NCBI GenBank assembly: GCA_029782355.1
Contig: JAKOUY010000023.1
Span: 248,001 to 312,000, forward strand
Direction: 5' to 3'
DNA from: Actinomycetes bacterium
Lineage (GTDB): Bacteria; Actinomycetota; Acidimicrobiia; Acidimicrobiales; Ilumatobacteraceae
DNA length: 64,000 nt
Part shown: one piece after another, positions 22,240 through 64,000 of the stretch
Numbering within the stretch: position 1 is the stretch's first letter
Layout of the letters: every line of letters starts with the position of its first letter
Translations under genes and position numbers: made by a program
Notes under the pieces: model-generated
The model's input: the letters and a program-made list of their open reading frames with translations, nothing else
Databases searched by the model: none
What the model was told of the DNA's origin: nothing

Positions 22240-22944
22240 TCAGGTCGAGCGCTGGAGCAGCGCGGCCATCTCGGCGATTTCTTCGCGCTGACCACCGGCC
22301 ATCTGGCGCGCCAGGTCACCGACCTCGGCGATGTCGGCGCGAGCGGCGGCGGCCTCGGCCATGTGGATGCCGCCCTGGTGGTGGGCGGTCATCAGCGTGA
22401 CGAAGATCGTGTCGGCGTCGTGCCCGGTCGACGCGGCCAACTTGGCCAGGTCGGCATCCGTCGCCAGGCCCGGCATGCGCGCCAGCGCCACTGGCTCGCC
22501 CATCCACCCCATGGCCACGTCGGTCTCGTTGATCTCCGGGCGCCCCCAGCTGCGCAGCAGCTGGACCATCATCCCGATCTCCTGGCTCTGCCCGACGACG
22601 ATCTCGGTGGCGATGGTCCGCAGCTCGGGCTGGATGCCCGGACGCGACAGGTAGGTCAGGGCGATCTCCACCGCCTGGTCGTGGTGCCAGTGCATGTCCT
22701 GCAGGAAGCCGATGTCGGCCGGGTTGGGATCGGGGATGTTGGTGTTGTTGCCGTTGACGAAGCCGAGCATCCCGGAGACCACCGCCAGCAGGATCCCGAG
22801 CACCGCGAGGTTCAGCTTGCTGTGCCACCACGGCAGCACGGTCACGTCGTCGGTGACGCCGGCGGGGGTGGCGTTCTCGGCGCGCTCGCCGGGTTCGGTC
22901 CCGGGTGGCTGGCCCGATGCGGTGGTCTCGGCGTCGCGGGTCAC
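22240..22944 (-). CDS. DUF305 domain membrane-anchored protein
   Basis: A 234-aa protein with one N-terminal membrane helix (LNLAVLGILLAVVSGMLGFV) and an extracytoplasmic four-helix DUF305 domain. The domain is ferritin-like; the paired motifs MHWHHDQAVEIA and MTAHHQGGIHMAE hold the conserved Met and His residues. The family is often linked to copper handling, but the function is unproven. GTG at 22944 is preferred because AACACT (22951-22956, minus strand) ends 6 nt upstream and upstream sequence is unrelated in character. Confidence 0.9.
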   Translation of the reverse strand: MTRDAETTASGQPPGTEPGERAENATPAGVTDDVTVLPWWHSKLNLAVLGILLAVVSGMLGFVNGNNTNIPDPNPADIGFLQDMHWHHDQAVEIALTYLSRPGIQPELRTIATEIVVGQSQEIGMMVQLLRSWGRPEINETDVAMGWMGEPVALARMPGLATDADLAKLAASTGHDADTIFVTLMTAHHQGGIHMAEAAAARADIAEVGDLARQMAGGQREEIAEMAALLQRST

Positions 22945-22978
22945 CTCGCCAGTGTTCCAGACCCCGCCCGGAAAACGG

Positions 22979-22984
22979 CAGACT
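22979..22984 (+). promoter_or_regulatory. -10 box of M24 peptidase gene
   Basis: CAGACT ends 6 nt before the ATG at 22991. Confidence 0.45.
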
Positions 22985-22990
22985 GGCTCG

Positions 22991-24103
22991 ATGCACGCCC
23001 CGCCGTCCACCGCTGTCCTCGCCGCGCGCCTCGAGCGAGCCCGGGCGGCAATGGCCGAGCACGGCACCGATGTCCTGGCGGTGTCGGTGGGCAGTGACCT
23101 GCCCTACCTGACCGGGTACGAGGCCATGCCGCTGGAGCGCCTGACCATGCTGGTGGTGCCGTCCGGCGGCGAGGCCACGCTGGTGGTGCCCCGGCTGGAA
23201 GCGCCCCGGGTGACCACGGCCGAGGGCCTGGTGACCGTCCGGCCGTGGGACGAGCTGGAGGATCCGGTGGCGATCGTCGCCGATCTGGTCCGCCGCCCTG
23301 GACGCGCCGCGGTGGGTGACACGATGTGGGCCCGGTTCCTGGTGGACCTGCTCGACCACTGGCCGACGACCCGCTTCCAGCGCGCCAGCGAGGTGCTCGG
23401 GCCGTTGCGGATGCGCAAGGACCCGGCCGAGGTCGCCGCGCTGCGCGCCGCCGCCGCCGCCGTCGACCGGATCGCCGCCGCCCTGCAGGCCGGCGAGATC
23501 GCCCTGGTCGGACGGACCGAGGCGCAGGTCTCGGCGGACATCGGCCGGCGGATCCTCGACGAGGGCCACGAGCGGGTCAACTTCGCCATCGTCGCCGCCG
23601 GGGCCAACGCCGCCTCGCCCCACCACGAGGCCGGGGAGCGGGTGATCGGCCCCGACGAGCTGGTGCTGTGCGACTTCGGGGGCACGATGGCCGGCTACTG
23701 CAGCGACATCACCCGCTGCGTGGTCACCGGCGACGTCCCGGCCGACATCGCCGAGGCCTACGACGTCCTCCAGGCCGCCCAGGCCGCCGGTGTCGCCGCC
23801 GGGCAGATCGGCGCGACCTGCCAGGAGGTCGACCGGGCCTGCCGGGCGATCATCGCCGACGCCGGGTACGGCGCGGCGTTCATCCATCGCACCGGGCACG
23901 GCATCGGCATGGAGGCCCACGAGGACCCCTACATCATCGAGGGCAACGCCGCGCCGATCGAGGCCGGCTTCGCCTACAGCGTCGAGCCGGGCATCTACCT
24001 GCCCGGTCGGTGGGGGATGCGCCTGGAGGACATCGTCGTGGCCGCCGCCGACGGGCCCGACGCGCTGAATCGCGCCGACCACGGTCTGGTGCCGGTGGGT
24101 TGA
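22991..24103 (+). CDS. M24 family Xaa-Pro peptidase
   Basis: A 370-aa metalloaminopeptidase. The N-terminal creatinase-like domain (~1-135) precedes the pita-bread catalytic domain. All five metal ligands can be seen: Asp in CDFGG, Asp in CSDITRC, His in HRTGHGIGME, Glu in VEPGIY and Glu in RLEDIV. It releases the N-terminal residue before proline from short peptides in the cytoplasm. Followed 43 nt later by the D-aminoacylase-like gene, which has its own -10 box. Confidence 0.94.
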   Translation: MHAPPSTAVLAARLERARAAMAEHGTDVLAVSVGSDLPYLTGYEAMPLERLTMLVVPSGGEATLVVPRLEAPRVTTAEGLVTVRPWDELEDPVAIVADLVRRPGRAAVGDTMWARFLVDLLDHWPTTRFQRASEVLGPLRMRKDPAEVAALRAAAAAVDRIAAALQAGEIALVGRTEAQVSADIGRRILDEGHERVNFAIVAAGANAASPHHEAGERVIGPDELVLCDFGGTMAGYCSDITRCVVTGDVPADIAEAYDVLQAAQAAGVAAGQIGATCQEVDRACRAIIADAGYGAAFIHRTGHGIGMEAHEDPYIIEGNAAPIEAGFAYSVEPGIYLPGRWGMRLEDIVVAAADGPDALNRADHGLVPVG

Positions 24104-55020: not shown

Positions 55021-56907
55021 TCAGCAGTCGGTGAGGGCGCTCATCGCCAGGGAGATCGACAGGTTGCCCGACGCCTGGCGTCCCGCCTGCACCGTCTGTT
55101 GCAGGTTGACTCGCAGCGTCCCGTCCTCGGCGAAGCCGTTGGGCATCTCGAACGAGTAGGTCCCGGTGGCGCTGAACGTCGCCCCACCGGTCGCTCCGTG
55201 GACGGTGACGGTCCCTCCGGTACCGCCGGGCGCCGCTGGGGCGAACTGCATCGTCATCACCGAGCCCTGCAGCTCGAACGGAACGGAGACGTCGCACACC
55301 ACCTGGTCGAAGGTCTCCTCGCCCTGCGAGCCGGTGATGCGGAACGATGGTGGACGCCAGTCGATCAGCGGTCCGAAGTGCTCGCCGAGGTCCCACTCGA
55401 TCGTCTTGGCGATGTCGATCGCCGGGGCGACGAACCCGACGGCGCCCGCGCTCTCCGCCGTCAGGCTGTCCCAGAAGGTGTTGAAGACCGAGTTCCCGGT
55501 GACCTCTTCGACCTGGGCCTGGATCTGGACGCCGTACTCCAGGTAGTCCTCGGCGGCGGCTTGCCCAACCGGCTTCTTCTGCCGCTTGCCGATGACCTTG
55601 AAGGTGACGCTCCCGGTCGAGTCGGTGGTGAACGTGCGTCCGCTCCACAGCGTGGCGCGCTCGGGCATGTTCGTGGCATCGGTGAGCGTGACGGAGACCC
55701 CGGTCAGCGGGCCGGCCGGTGGGAAGCTGAGCTGGACACCGGCGGCATTGGCGAGGTTGCTGAGCGCGCAGAGGGCCTTGACGTTCCCGTCGGGCAGCTT
55801 GCCCGGATCGATCGACAGGTCCAACCGGTTGGTGATCTCCGCCCCATCCTCACTCGTCGACTTGGTGCGTCTCACGGTGTCGAAGGATCCTCCGACGGTG
55901 ACCGTGGCGAGTTGCATCAGCAACGACGCGAGATAGGTCACCGCGTTGGCCTTGGTGAGGAACGCCACCGCCCGCTCGAACGGCACCTTGGCGATCACCT
56001 CCTGGTTGAGGTCGACGATCGTCTCGACCAGACCAGGGAGCTTGACGCCCTCCACGGCACCTCCGCCGAGCACCTTGGAGATCACCTGGTTGGTCACCAC
56101 CGTCAGGTCCTCGCTGCCCCAGAACTGGCTGCACGGGAGGTCTGCGTCGTTCCCCTGGAACATGCCCCTGATCTGCGGGGCGCGTCGCTGCCAGCCGGCG
56201 GGAGCCACCGCATTCTCCCGGGTGACGACCGCCGCGGTGATGGCGCGAACGACCACCCACTGGACGAACATCGCCGTCGGGAGGTCGACGACGACCGCCT
56301 GGGGATCGACCGTCGGGTCGAACAGGCTCGTGGCGGCCAGATGTCGCGAACGGTGGTCGAGAAACCCGGCCACGAAGGTGGCGAGCTGGTCACCTGCGGC
56401 ACGTGCCGTCGCCAGGTCGGCGAGGAACGCCGTGGCGGCGCGGGCGGCGTCGGCCTGGTTCCCGGGCGTGGCGCCGTCGACGATCGGCTTGAACGCATCG
56501 GCGAGGGACATCCCGGTGTCCGTCCCGGACACCATCCACACCGCCCACCACGGTGGTCCGACCGGGTCGTCCGCGATCGAGGCTGCTCGGAGGTCGGGGA
56601 GGATCGGGATCAGCGCTGCGGCGTAGGCCTGTCGCCAGGCGCGGTCGACCTCATCGGGTGTCCCGGCGCCCGGTTTGGTGGTCACCGCCAGCCAGGTGGC
56701 CAGCTGGTCGGCGGCCAGACCAGTCGAGTCGATCACGTCCGGAAGCGGGGGCACGGTCGGTGGATCGATCGGCGGCGCGGCGCTCGGTGGGCGAACGGCC
56801 GAGGCCGGCTGCGCCAGTGACACGGCGGCGAGCGGTGTGGTCAACGAGCACGCCGCGATCCAAGCCGTGACATGGCGAGCCAGACGGTGGGGGTGCCGGG
56901 TGGCCAT
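55021..56907 (-). CDS. Large secreted protein of unknown function
   Basis: A 628-aa protein I cannot assign. The first ~37 residues are a signal peptide (WIAACSLTTPLAAVSLAQPASA). A Pro-rich linker leads to a helical domain (~55-340) and a beta-rich C-terminal half (~365-628) with strand-turn patterns and few Cys. No catalytic motif is visible. The C-terminus ends ALTDC. Start 56907 fits CATACT (56914-56919, minus strand) 6 nt upstream and includes the whole signal peptide; a longer frame to 56943 adds a few residues. Confidence 0.7.
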   Translation of the reverse strand: MATRHPHRLARHVTAWIAACSLTTPLAAVSLAQPASAVRPPSAAPPIDPPTVPPLPDVIDSTGLAADQLATWLAVTTKPGAGTPDEVDRAWRQAYAAALIPILPDLRAASIADDPVGPPWWAVWMVSGTDTGMSLADAFKPIVDGATPGNQADAARAATAFLADLATARAAGDQLATFVAGFLDHRSRHLAATSLFDPTVDPQAVVVDLPTAMFVQWVVVRAITAAVVTRENAVAPAGWQRRAPQIRGMFQGNDADLPCSQFWGSEDLTVVTNQVISKVLGGGAVEGVKLPGLVETIVDLNQEVIAKVPFERAVAFLTKANAVTYLASLLMQLATVTVGGSFDTVRRTKSTSEDGAEITNRLDLSIDPGKLPDGNVKALCALSNLANAAGVQLSFPPAGPLTGVSVTLTDATNMPERATLWSGRTFTTDSTGSVTFKVIGKRQKKPVGQAAAEDYLEYGVQIQAQVEEVTGNSVFNTFWDSLTAESAGAVGFVAPAIDIAKTIEWDLGEHFGPLIDWRPPSFRITGSQGEETFDQVVCDVSVPFELQGSVMTMQFAPAAPGGTGGTVTVHGATGGATFSATGTYSFEMPNGFAEDGTLRVNLQQTVQAGRQASGNLSISLAMSALTDC

Positions 56908-56913
56908 CTGGCG

Positions 56914-56919
56914 AGTATG
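56914..56919 (-). promoter_or_regulatory. -10 box of secreted unknown gene
   Basis: CATACT on the minus strand ends 6 nt before the ATG at 56907. Confidence 0.35.
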
Positions 56920-56988
56920 AGCCTGGCGGGTCGTCCGGCGCACCGGGCAATTGCCAGGTCTTCGATCGCCAGGCGACCCTCTGGCGGG

Positions 56989-57912: not shown

Positions 57913-59907
57913 TCAGCCGAACGTCGTGGTCGAGCCGTGGACGTGGTCGCAGAGATGCTCCTCGCCGGGCTTCACCTGGCCGGCGCCGACTCCCTCCAGG
58001 GCAGCGAACGGCCCGCAGGCGTTGGGGACGATCCACACGTGGATCATCGGCGCCGGCCGGAACTTCTGGAGCCCGGCCCGGCAGGTACCGGCCGAGTCGG
58101 TCAGCCCGGCGACGCGCGGCGCCGGATCGCTGGTGAAGCATAGGTTGTCGTGGATGTGCCACTGCATGAGTGCCCCGCCGATGTCGGGGATCTGATCGAG
58201 GGTCACCGTGTCGGGCAGCATGTACATCGCGCTGACGAGGGTCTTCGTGCCGTCCGGTCCGATCTGGTACACGAGGCTCTCCGGCCGGTCCGGATCGAGG
58301 GTGACGTCGTCGTTGATCCAGTCCCAGTGGATGTAGTGCTCGTAGCCGGTGACGCCGTCGCCGATGCTGCGGAACCCGGCGAACTCGGCGACGTGGGAGT
58401 CCGCCCATTTCGGCAACCGCACGAGGGTGACGGCGACGAGGTTCTCGGCGGCTGCCTGCTGCTGGGGCGTGACACCCGGCATCCCGCCGAGGTCGATCGG
58501 CTTGGTGGGGTCGTAGGGCACCCGGGCAGCGTTCGATGCCGGCGCCGGCACCGACGAGTCTGCGGCGGGTGCCGTGCCGCCGGTCGGCGGCGCGGGGTGA
58601 TCGTGGGCATGGTGGCAGACGTCGGTCCGTTGGGACTCGGCCACCGCGCTCTGTCCCTGACCGACGCCCTCCAGGGCGGCGAACACACCACAGGCGTTCG
58701 GCGTGATCCACACGTGGACCATCGGGTTGCTCCCGCCGGCCCTGACGCCCTTGGCGCAGGTCCCGTTGGCATCGGTCAGGCCGACCACCTGGAAGCTGCC
58801 ATTGACCCGTCCCCAGCACAGGTTGCCGTGGGTGTGCCAGGTCATCAGCGGGCCGGCAAAGCTGGTCAGCGTCGGGTCGTCGGCCGGCCTGGCGCTGGCG
58901 ATGAACATCGCCCCGGCCAACGTCCGCTGCTCGCCGTGGACCGTGTACACCAACGACTCCGGCTGGGTCGGGTCGAGGAGCACGTCGTCGTTGATCAGCG
59001 AGACCTTGATGAAGTGCTCCGAGCCGGTGGCCGCGTCCCCGATGCTGCGATAGCCGTCGGCGACGGCGGCTTGCGTGGTCGACCACCGCGGGAGATCGCG
59101 CAGCGTGCCCTCCACCAGGGTGCGGGCCCGGGACTCCTGGTCGGCGGACACGCCGGGCACGCCGGACAGGTCGAGCGGGTTGGCCGGGTCCCATGGCCGG
59201 GGCCAGGCAACGGCAGGCGTGGTGGCGGCGGTGGGGGCGCTGACCGGAGTGTGGGAGTGCTGGTGAACCGTGCTGGCCGTGGTTCCAGAGCTGGCCGCGG
59301 CGGGCGCCGAGTCGTGGGTGTGCGGGCTCGACTCGCTCGGGGCGGCGACGGTGTCGTGGGTGTGGCCGGTGGCCTCACCCGGGGCGACCACGGCGGCTTC
59401 GTGGGTGTGGTCGGCGGCCAGCGCGTCGTGGTGATGCGTCGTGGTGCCTCCCACCACCATGGCCGGGAGCGCCAGGGCGACCGCGCCCACCGAGTACCAC
59501 GCCAGTGGGGGCCGGGCGGCGGGACGTCGACCGATCGACGCCCCAGCCAGCGCCGCGCCGACCGCGATGGCGGCTGCGGTGGCGCACAGGGTGTCGGCAA
59601 AGCCGATCGACTCACGCACCTCCAGCCCACCGATCCACGACACGCCCACGAACCGGGTCACCAACCAGGCGCCGACGGCCACCGCGTTCACCGCCACGAG
59701 ACCGATCGCCGCGGTGCGGCTGGGGCGGGCCAGCGCGGCCAGGCCGGCCAGCAGTTGGGCGGCCGCGGCCGCGACGAACAGGCGGGCCAGGGTGGCGTGA
59801 TCAGCATGCACACCGGCGCAGGCCGCGTGGATGGCGCCGGCGGCGATCGACCCCAGCGCGGCGATCGCCAGGGCTGGGACTCGCTGGTCGGGCTCGGGTG
59901 TCGGCAT
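57913..59907 (-). CDS. His-rich membrane protein with two copies of an unnamed domain
   Basis: A 664-aa protein. N-terminal part: about five hydrophobic segments (~10-32, 40-60, 66-86, 104-124, 138-155). Linker 155-222: HHHD, DHTHE, GHTHD, PHTHD, HQHSH. Two ~195-residue copies follow (about 238-431 and 465-657) sharing W-H-x-H-x-N-L-C, G-T-C, M-x-H-V-W-I-x-P-N-A-C-G-x-F-A-A-L-E-G-V-G, G-x-E-H and an end of C-x-H-x-H. The conserved His/Cys sets suggest metal binding by each repeat, probably outside the membrane; I recognise no family and no metal is assigned. TAGACT (59916-59921, minus strand) ends 8 nt before the ATG. Confidence 0.8.
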   Translation of the reverse strand: MPTPEPDQRVPALAIAALGSIAAGAIHAACAGVHADHATLARLFVAAAAAQLLAGLAALARPSRTAAIGLVAVNAVAVGAWLVTRFVGVSWIGGLEVRESIGFADTLCATAAAIAVGAALAGASIGRRPAARPPLAWYSVGAVALALPAMVVGGTTTHHHDALAADHTHEAAVVAPGEATGHTHDTVAAPSESSPHTHDSAPAAASSGTTASTVHQHSHTPVSAPTAATTPAVAWPRPWDPANPLDLSGVPGVSADQESRARTLVEGTLRDLPRWSTTQAAVADGYRSIGDAATGSEHFIKVSLINDDVLLDPTQPESLVYTVHGEQRTLAGAMFIASARPADDPTLTSFAGPLMTWHTHGNLCWGRVNGSFQVVGLTDANGTCAKGVRAGGSNPMVHVWITPNACGVFAALEGVGQGQSAVAESQRTDVCHHAHDHPAPPTGGTAPAADSSVPAPASNAARVPYDPTKPIDLGGMPGVTPQQQAAAENLVAVTLVRLPKWADSHVAEFAGFRSIGDGVTGYEHYIHWDWINDDVTLDPDRPESLVYQIGPDGTKTLVSAMYMLPDTVTLDQIPDIGGALMQWHIHDNLCFTSDPAPRVAGLTDSAGTCRAGLQKFRPAPMIHVWIVPNACGPFAALEGVGAGQVKPGEEHLCDHVHGSTTTFG

Positions 59908-59915
59908 GAGCCGGC

Positions 59916-59921
59916 AGTCTA
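59916..59921 (-). promoter_or_regulatory. -10 box of His-rich membrane protein gene
   Basis: TAGACT on the minus strand ends 8 nt before the ATG at 59907. Confidence 0.45.
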
Positions 59922-59965
59922 CGGTCGGCCGCTGCGACCGCCTGGGCGAGCCGTCCCGCCGGAGA

Positions 59966-60751
59966 TCAGAAGCTGGCGCGCGAGAGGGCGTCGAGCGCCC
60001 GCCCGGCCAGCTCGCGGCGGCAGATCAGCAGATCCGGCAGCCACGGATCGCGCTCGTTGTACACCAGCGGGCTGCCGTCGATGCGGCTGACGTGCAACCC
60101 GGCCGCGGCGGCGACGGCGACGGGTGCGGCCGAGTCCCACTGGTACATGCCGCCGTCGTGGACGTAGATGTCGGCGTCGCCGACGAGCACCGCCATGGCC
60201 TTGGCACCCGCCGACCCGAGGCGTACGGCGTCGCAGTCCAGCGCCTGGGCGACGACCACGGCGGAATAGGGATTGCGAGTACGCGAGGTGATCAGCCGGG
60301 GCCGCTCACGCTGCACCTCGGCCAGCACCGGCTCCGGCTCGGTGGCGAACGTGACCGCCAGAGCCGGCAGGCTGACCGCCCCCGCCGACAGCCGTACCCC
60401 GTCCCACAGGGCGACGTGCACCGCCCAGTCGTGGCGGCCGGGCTCGCCGAACTCGTTGGTGCCGTCGAGCGGGTCGACGATCCACACCCGATCGCTGCCG
60501 AAGCGGCGCGGATCGTCGAGCCCCTCCTCGGACAGCACGGCGTCCTCCGGTCGGGCAGCATGCAGCTGCTCGACCAGGAAGTGGTGGCTGATCTGGTCGC
60601 CGTGGTCCATCACCTGCCAGCGGGCCGCGCCGCGATCGGTGAGATGGCTGCGGACCTCGACCAGGAGCTGGCCGGCCTGGGTGGCCAAGCGGGCGGCGAG
60701 TTGGGCGTCGGTCTCCTGGCCGGGATCTGGCGAGGTGGCGTCGGCGATCAT
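59966..60751 (-). CDS. Inositol monophosphatase-like / 3'(2'),5'-bisphosphate nucleotidase
   Basis: A 261-aa phosphatase. SEEG (metal), WIVDPLDGTNEF (Mg-binding DPLDGT) and WDSAAPVAVAAAAGL (WD-x-AAP motif) are present in the right order. This set fits the CysQ branch (3'-phosphoadenosine phosphate, sulfate assimilation) or inositol phosphatases; I lean to CysQ. ATG overlaps the stop of the small membrane gene by 4 nt. Confidence 0.88.
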   Translation of the reverse strand: MIADATSPDPGQETDAQLAARLATQAGQLLVEVRSHLTDRGAARWQVMDHGDQISHHFLVEQLHAARPEDAVLSEEGLDDPRRFGSDRVWIVDPLDGTNEFGEPGRHDWAVHVALWDGVRLSAGAVSLPALAVTFATEPEPVLAEVQRERPRLITSRTRNPYSAVVVAQALDCDAVRLGSAGAKAMAVLVGDADIYVHDGGMYQWDSAAPVAVAAAAGLHVSRIDGSPLVYNERDPWLPDLLICRRELAGRALDALSRASF

Positions 60752-61050
60752 CCGCCGCCCAGCCTGGCGGCGTCGCGCACCAACCCGCGCACCTCGGTCT
60801 CGTCCGCTCCGGCGGCGACCAACCGGGCGATGCGCGCCTCGACCTGCTCACCGGCGGCCTCCGTGAAGGCGTCGATGCGGCCCGGTGCCAGCGCTCCGTA
60901 CACCAGCAACGCCACCGCCGCCAGGACGATGACCCCACCGATGGACAGCACCACGCCGTTGTTGTTGCCGGCGACCGAGCTGATGATCAGCCCGGCGATG
61001 CCGGCCACGAACACGGTGGCGCACACTCGGGGGATCAGGCGGCGGGCCAC
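60748..61050 (-). CDS. Small membrane protein (100 aa)
   Basis: A 100-aa protein with two hydrophobic segments (~9-27, 34-53) and a charged C-terminal helix (VEARIARLVAAGADETEVRGLVRDAARLGG). No family recognised. GTG start with CAGACT (61057-61062, minus strand) ending 6 nt upstream, within the 20-bp gap after ettA, so it has its own promoter. Coupled to the CysQ-like gene that follows. Confidence 0.75.
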   Translation of the reverse strand: MARRLIPRVCATVFVAGIAGLIISSVAGNNNGVVLSIGGVIVLAAVALLVYGALAPGRIDAFTEAAGEQVEARIARLVAAGADETEVRGLVRDAARLGGG

Positions 61051-61056
61051 GGGTGC

Positions 61057-61062
61057 AGTCTG
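61057..61062 (-). promoter_or_regulatory. -10 box of small membrane protein operon
   Basis: CAGACT on the minus strand ends 6 nt before the GTG at 61050. Confidence 0.45.
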
Positions 61063-61070
61063 CCAGGCCC

Positions 61071-62747
<1,677 letters not shown>

Positions 62748-62821
62748 AGCGGCGCTCCAGGCTATCGGCGCGGCGGGTGAGCAGGGCGGGCTCGATCCGC
62801 GGTGGGTTTCCGGGGCAGTGC

Positions 62822-62827
62822 TACGTT
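62822..62827 (+). promoter_or_regulatory. -10 box of PuuD-like gene
   Basis: TACGTT precedes the ATG at 62864 by 36 nt; a GAAAGG ribosome site lies in the leader. Confidence 0.4.
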
Positions 62828-62863
62828 GACCGTCACTCGGACGGACGACAGAAAGGCACGACG

Positions 62864-63628
62864 ATGCTCGCGGAGTACTCGGGATTCTTCAGCCGGAACA
62901 GCCTGGGCACCTTCGGGTTCCGCTGGCTGCACATCCTCGCCGGGATCACCTGGATCGGCCTGCTGTACTACTTCAACTTCGTCCAGGTCCCGGCCTTCGC
63001 CGAGTACGGCGACGAGGCCAAGGCCCGCAACATCGCCCTCGACAAGGTCGCCCGCCGCGCCCTGTGGTGGTTCCGCTGGGCGGCGTTCTCCACCTTCGTC
63101 ACCGGGATCCTGATCACGGTGGTGACCGAGAAGTACTACTCGAACAACTTCGGCAAATCCGGGCGGGGTCTGGCCATCACGACCGGCATGATCCTCGGCA
63201 CGATCATGATGCTCAACGTGTGGGGCGTGATCTGGCGCAACCAGAAGGTCGTCCTGGCCAACGCGGCGAACCTGATCGCCGGCGGTCAGGCCGATCCGGC
63301 CGCAGCCGCGGCCGGCCGCAAGGCGCTGATGGCCAGCCGGCAGAACACGGTCTTCTCGGTCTCGATGCTGTTCTTCATGGTGTTCACCGCGCACAGCTTC
63401 TACCAGGGCAACGTCCTGAGCGGCGGGAAGGTCGGCACCTACTGGCTGATCGCCCTGATCATCATCGCCGTCCTCGAGCTCAACGCCCTGGGCCTGATGC
63501 CGTGGAAGACCGAGGTCAACAAGGGCCTCAACAAGCTCTACGACAACGGTGTGCGCGGCACGCTCATCGCCGCCTTCGGGCTGTGGGTGATCTTCCTGAT
63601 CCTGACGGAGATCTTCTTCAAGATCTGA
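62864..63628 (+). CDS. Membrane protein of the urate hydroxylase (PuuD N-terminal) family
   Basis: A 254-aa membrane protein with six or seven helices. [27 protein letters not shown] is the characteristic first helix of the family that in PuuD carries a haem-linked urate hydroxylase; the His in WLHILAG and further His in MVFTAHSF may ligate haem. This copy lacks the C-terminal cytochrome c domain of full PuuD, so whether it oxidises urate is uncertain. Ends 20 bp before a large palindrome. Confidence 0.8.
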
Positions 63629-63648
63629 CCCGCCCCGCTCGGCAACCC

Positions 63649-63686
63649 GTCGTGACATGTTCGCCACGTGGCGTTCATGTCACGAC
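63649..63686. terminator. 38-bp near-perfect palindrome between convergent genes
   Basis: Outer arms GTCGTGACATG / CATGTCACGAC (11 bp), TT/TT symmetric mismatch, inner arms CGCCAC / GTGGCG. It lies between two convergent genes and could serve as a terminator for both, but it lacks a T-run and the perfect symmetry also fits a protein-binding site. Confidence 0.5.
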
Positions 63687-63694
63687 ACGATGGC

Positions 63695-63722
63695 TCAGCT
63701 GACCGTCATCAGCTGACCGTCA
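63695..63722. repeat. 14-bp tandem duplication at the cupredoxin gene stop
   Basis: TCAGCTGACCGTCA at 63695-63708 is repeated at 63709-63722. The second copy contains the stop codon of the minus-strand gene, giving tandem TGA TGA. Confidence 0.95.
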
Positions 63723-64000
63723 GGGTGGCCTTCATGTTGCTGTGGCCGGGGACGGTGCAGATCAGCGTGTAGGTCCCGGGCTTCAACGTGAAGGTGCCCG
63801 TCTTCGTGGCGTTGGGGTTGGCGTCGATCACCGTGCCACTGTCGACGCCGTCGGCGCCGACCGCGTGCAGGTTGTGGTTGACCAGGTCGTCGTTCTGCAG
63901 GCGGACGACGACCTTGCCGTCGGTGGCGGTGGCCGTGTAGGCCGGCTTGTCCCAGGCGATGTGGTTGGCGACGACGACCAGATCGGCGGGTGGCTGGGTG
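63709..64000 (-). CDS. Cupredoxin (plastocyanin/azurin-like) domain protein, C-terminal part
   Basis: The frame runs off the right edge of the window; the last 96 residues are seen. VNHNLHAVG provides the first copper His and the end has C-T-V-P-G-H-S-N-M, the type 1 copper Cys, His and Met in the usual spacing. It therefore probably is a small secreted blue-copper electron carrier or binding protein. N-terminal signals are not visible. The stop codon lies inside a 14-bp tandem duplication. Confidence 0.88.
   Translation of the reverse strand, partial: TQPPADLVVVANHIAWDKPAYTATATDGKVVVRLQNDDLVNHNLHAVGADGVDSGTVIDANPNATKTGTFTLKPGTYTLICTVPGHSNMKATLTVS

What the first reader, a model, noticed from the sequence alone, without database searches (positions are those of the whole stretch)
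57913..59907. His-rich membrane protein with a duplicated unnamed domain
Two ~195-aa copies conserve W-H-x-H-x-N-L-C, M-x-H-V-W...N-A-C-G and C-x-H-x-H, joined to a five-helix membrane part by a linker with HHH, HTH and HQHSH clusters. I know no named family. The pattern suggests a metal (copper, zinc or nickel) buffer, sensor or transporter. The cupredoxin at 63709 and the DUF305 protein at 22240 hint that copper matters in this organism.
Basis: partly seen in the sequence, partly recalled or inferred. Interest (0 to 1): 0.62.

Follow-up and report, generated by a model that had tools for sequence, protein, structure and literature searches.

The report
Unnamed histidine-rich bacterial metal-handling membrane protein
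This actinobacterial protein anchors two copies of an unnamed histidine-bearing domain outside the cell through a five-helix membrane part and a histidine-rich linker, and relatives join both parts to known copper proteins, so it probably captures copper (or a similar metal) at the cell surface.

Summary
The 664-aa ORF at 57913-59907(-) has a five-helix membrane module, a 12-His linker and two domain copies (47% identical, E 3e-59). Neither part matches Pfam, NCBIfam or PDB sequences. AlphaFold models are confident (pLDDT 90 and 89). The domain model has no good PDB match; the membrane module's best matches are common helical bundles.

The domain belongs to a wide unnamed superfamily: 41 of 396 Actinomycetota genomes, plus proteobacterial and haloarchaeal relatives of its short secreted class. 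Two His (H63, H162 in copy-2 numbering) and Trp164 are near-universal. An HxH pair (H123/H125) is added in the long class. The Cys co-vary as two pairs (probable disulfides), so they are probably not metal ligands.

Architecture supports metal handling. The membrane module is fused to multicopper oxidases and DUF305 in other genomes. The domain is fused to a cupredoxin in same-family relatives. Short-class genes sit beside SCO4226-like nickel-protein genes in three genomes. Charge distribution puts the domains outside the cell.

Best reading: an extracytoplasmic copper-capture and buffering protein, analogous to but not homologous with CopC-CopD fusions. Metal binding, metal identity and transport are inferred.

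The parts
57913..59907 (-). whole gene, 664 aa, unnamed protein
59443..59877 (-). five-helix membrane module (residues 11-155); conserved H27, H34, H37, Q51, W81, G88, G94, E99, D105, mostly at the outer ends of helices or in outer loops
   Evidence: AF2 pLDDT 89.4; alignments A5/A6; charge bias
59197..59442 (-). His-rich linker (residues 156-237) with HHH, HTH x3, HQHSH
58603..59196 (-). domain copy 1 (residues 238-435): H298, H358, H360, H398; Cys C364/C384 and C406/C431
58519..58602 (-). inter-domain linker (residues 436-463)
57937..58518 (-). domain copy 2 (residues 464-657): H524, H584, H586, H623, W625; Cys C590/C609 and C631/C653
   Evidence: AF2 pLDDT 90.0, pTM 0.86

Best explanation
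A membrane-anchored, extracytoplasmic metal-capture protein, most probably for Cu(II). Shown by sequence: two ancient copies of one domain, an outside-facing orientation suggested by charge, and strict conservation of four His in both copies. Inferred: each domain holds a metal through the near-universal pair H63/H162, joined in this class by H123 and H125, with the Cys pairs as disulfides that stiffen the domain. The His-rich linker is a low-affinity relay or extra buffer. The membrane module, with conserved His/Trp/Glu/Asp at its outer face and HxH just after helix 5, receives the metal for uptake or for loading of membrane cuproproteins, or simply anchors the store. Functionally this would resemble CopC-CopD (YcnJ-type) fusions without homology to them.
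For: Membrane module is N-terminal to multicopper oxidases (L244, L229, L232 by Pfam; L230 and L231 by eye) and to DUF305 (L233). Domain is fused to a C-terminal cupredoxin in relatives (L168, L169). Four His invariant in 92 copies and both repeats. H63 in 70 of 72, H162 and W164 in 71 of 72 across the wider superfamily; one member that lost H63 to Met also lost H162 to Arg. His-rich linker conserved. Inner loops carry K+R and outer loops D+E. Cupredoxin gene 3.7-7.2 kb upstream in 10 of 80 loci. DUF305 family member CopM binds copper (PMC4335983).
Against: No metal binding is measured. The membrane module also occurs alone and fused to a likely beta-propeller and other non-copper parts (L234, L242, L243). 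Immediate neighbours (EttA, IMPase) are housekeeping genes, not copper genes. The short class lacks HxH and neighbours SCO4226-like nickel-family genes. Neighbourhoods of diverse relatives showed no recurring copper gene by eye.
Confidence: 0.5

Rival explanations
1. The domain is a metal-dependent enzyme: conserved His plus Glu82/Asp72/Tyr86/Trp164 make a catalytic site and the linker and membrane part only anchor and supply metal.
For: More conserved polar and aromatic residues than a simple buffer needs: E82 in 63 of 72, Y86 in 66, W164 in 71. Secreted single-domain forms exist without linker or membrane part.
Against: Candidate ligands H123/H125 are missing in the short class. No conserved metabolic neighbour for the long class beyond housekeeping genes. 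No enzyme fold matched.
Confidence: 0.2
2. It binds metal, but physiologically nickel, zinc or cobalt rather than copper.
For: Short-class relatives lie beside SCO4226-like genes on the same strand in L185, L187 and a Neorhizobium plasmid; SCO4226 binds nickel (PMC4186839). His-rich, Met-poor linkers also suit Ni(II)/Zn(II).
Against: The recognised metal domains found fused to either module are copper types. The nickel link is in the short class, which lacks HxH and the linker; the three neighbours pass the Pfam cut-off but score far below the NCBIfam equivalog cut-off.
Confidence: 0.15
3. Not a metal protein in vivo: an extracytoplasmic ligand-binding or structural domain whose His serve another role, with a His-rich linker that acts as a pH-responsive spacer.
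For: No direct metal evidence; short class has no copper neighbours in annotated plasmids.
Against: Independent fusions of both modules to copper proteins; strict His retention in both repeats after long divergence.
Confidence: 0.12

Closest known systems
CopC-CopD fusions such as Bacillus YcnJ (from general knowledge; YcnJ as proposed copper importer is in PMC13344008)
   Same: Extracytoplasmic putative metal-binding domain joined to a polytopic membrane module with conserved polar/His residues
   Different: No Pfam match of any kind to the protein; five helices, membrane part N-terminal; His-rich linker; two copies of an unrelated domain
DUF305 / CopM
   Same: Extracytoplasmic domain family with a copper-binding member; also found fused to the same membrane module (L233)
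   Different: Different sequence family; no DUF305 match in this protein
Membrane-anchored multicopper oxidases of Actinomycetota
   Same: Share the N-terminal membrane module
   Different: C-terminal part is an unrelated domain with no multicopper oxidase match
Csp copper storage proteins
   Same: Four-helix bundle resembling the first four helices of the membrane module (Z 11.5, 2.7 A over 105 residues)
   Different: Soluble and Cys-lined (general knowledge); the module has no conserved Cys; Z is within the range the tool gives for common helical bundles
Short secreted 'hypothetical proteins' (~180 aa) with GMGxHY and LHAWxW motifs
   Same: Same superfamily by profile; share H63, H162, W164
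   Different: No membrane module, no His linker, no HxH

Membership tests
CopC/CopD copper proteins | Pfam match to CopC or CopD | tested here: not met
   No Pfam family at E<=1 for the whole protein nor CopC/CopD among members of A2 or A5
CopC/CopD copper proteins | Copper binding or import | not testable with these tools
   needs purified protein or mutant
DUF305 (CopM-like) | Pfam PF03713 match | tested here: not met
   absent; present in L233 and window 22240-23067
Cupredoxin / multicopper oxidase | Pfam Copper-bind or Cu-oxidase match | tested here: not met
   only relatives of each module carry them
Csp copper storage protein | four-helix bundle fold | tested here: inconclusive
   VIA Z 11.5, 105 residues, 2.7 A, but unrelated helical bundles score 8-10; Foldseek E 1.9 or worse
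Csp copper storage protein | core lined with conserved Cys | tested here: not met
   no Cys among conserved positions of A5/A6
Cupin-type metal proteins | Pfam cupin match | tested here: not met
   no cupin among hits or 21
Cupin-type metal proteins | double-stranded beta barrel fold | tested here: inconclusive
   only six strands of 3 or more residues in the model; KduI rows at TM 0.09
SCO4226-like nickel proteins | PF14026 match | tested here: not met
   neighbours of the short class match, the protein itself does not

The most novel reading that the evidence does not exclude
A large unnamed superfamily, present in bacteria and haloarchaea, is a new extracytoplasmic metal-binding fold built on a near-universal His pair. 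Its membrane class uses a new five-helix module that Actinomycetota use as a general membrane partner for copper proteins, from DUF305 to giant multicopper oxidases.
Probability: 0.35. Interest if true: 0.75.

Novelty: new variant of a known kind. Interest (0 to 1): 0.52.

Why it matters
Copper handling outside the cell in Actinomycetota is known mainly through CopC/CopD, DUF305 and cupredoxins (general knowledge). If the reading holds, this adds an unrelated domain and an unnamed membrane module shared with multicopper oxidases, and gives a first functional lead and defined residues to test for a superfamily that is annotated only as hypothetical protein.

Tried and rejected
Named families: Pfam, NCBIfam and PDB sequence searches of the protein and of alignments gave nothing significant. 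Fold look-up of the domain: Foldseek PDB best E 0.27, VIA best Z 3.3 to cytochrome c' beta, BFVD nothing below E 0.3; a missing match does not prove a new fold. Heme protein: rests only on that weak row; no CxxCH motif; dropped. Cys as metal ligands: co-variation of C129/C148 and C170/C192 favours disulfides (related sequences inflate the p-values). Copper operon: immediate neighbours are housekeeping genes in conserved order. Viral contigs: none; plasmids: none for the window domain, five for a short-class member. Literature searches for motif strings and for Ilumatobacter with copper found nothing.

Full report
The observation. The ORF at 57913-59907 on the minus strand encodes 664 aa. No Pfam family (E<=1), no NCBIfam family (E<=1) and no credible PDB sequence matches it.

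The family. A profile of the two copies found relatives in 29 of 61 near genomes and 17 of 296 across the phylum; a wider profile of 46 members found 41 of 396. Named relatives are mostly Ilumatobacteraceae and other Acidimicrobiia, with Blastococcus and Frankiales. Scanning 46 diverse domain members against Pfam and NCBIfam gave nothing significant, and their profile hit nothing in PDB sequences. A short secreted class of about 180 aa belongs to the same superfamily by profile; one member finds proteobacterial, Gemmatirosa and haloarchaeal relatives, annotated as hypothetical protein where annotated, and members match no Pfam or NCBIfam family.

Evolution. In a tree of 124 domain rows the first copies form one clade (100/99 support, with one single-domain row from a broken gene inside it), while second copies lie among single-domain proteins. 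So the second copy resembles the ancestral single domain, and the duplication was probably one old event followed by losses. Both copies keep the whole His/Cys set.

Conserved site. In 72 superfamily rows H63 is kept in 70, H162 and W164 in 71; H123 and H125 are present in 59 rows each and gapped in 13, mostly the short class. One row with H63 replaced by Met also has H162 replaced by Arg. Cys pairs 129/148 and 170/192 co-vary, which suggests disulfides; the alignment of the short class at these columns is uncertain and related rows are not independent.

Structure. AlphaFold gave pLDDT 90, pTM 0.86 for copy 2. H63 and H162 lie in strands 61-65 and 160-164 and H123 in a bridge at 123-124, which is compatible with, but does not show, a common site, because coordinates are not returned. 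No solved or viral fold matched well.

Membrane module. Five helices at pLDDT 89. Inner loops average 1.8 and 2.6 K+R against 0.2 and 0.4 D+E; the large outer loop is acidic. This places the linker and domains outside. Conserved H27, H34, W81, E99, D105 and the HxH after helix 5 sit at the outer end. Foldseek and VIA found only helical bundles, Csp copper-storage proteins first at Z 11.5, within the range expected for common bundles.

Functional links. The module occurs in 40 of 198 Actinomycetota genomes. It is fused to a Tat-type multicopper oxidase (L244), to giant multicopper-oxidase proteins of about 1,900-2,100 aa (L229, L232 by Pfam; L230, L231 by eye) and to DUF305 (L233, E 1e-50). It is also found alone and with apparently unrelated parts. 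The domain itself is followed by a Pfam Copper-bind domain in relatives L168 and L169. Short-class genes in L185, L187 and a Neorhizobium plasmid lie beside SCO4226-like genes; SCO4226 binds nickel (PMC4186839). In 36 of 80 loci the gene follows the IMPase gene, often with EttA further upstream; a cupredoxin gene is found in 10.

Conclusion. Extracytoplasmic metal capture, copper first, is the best-supported reading at about 0.5. Metal binding, the metal, and any transport step are inference. The kind of function is known; the domain, membrane module and their family are undescribed in the libraries searched.

Noticed in passing
L229-L232: Giant 1,900-2,100-aa proteins with the same membrane module followed by several multicopper-oxidase-like stretches; L230-L232 also have a stand-alone copy of the module next to the gene.
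   Followed up: partly
L185, L187, L249: Short secreted relatives lie next to SCO4226-like (nickel protein family) genes on the same strand in Actinomycetota and Neorhizobium.
   Followed up: partly
window 59907-64000 and related loci: Conserved gene order in Ilumatobacteraceae-type genomes: cupredoxin, Urate_ox_N membrane protein, EttA, small membrane protein, IMPase, then this gene.
   Followed up: yes
L084, L116, L120: MAG records titled Bifidobacterium breve group with Acidimicrobiia-type copies in the tree, so they are probably mislabelled.
   Followed up: no
window 55021-56943: 640-aa protein with N-terminal signal-like segment and no Pfam or significant NCBIfam match; no counterpart in the 80 related loci.
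   Followed up: no
L238, L239: Membrane module followed by a second polytopic part with a CCGxP-like motif.
   Followed up: no
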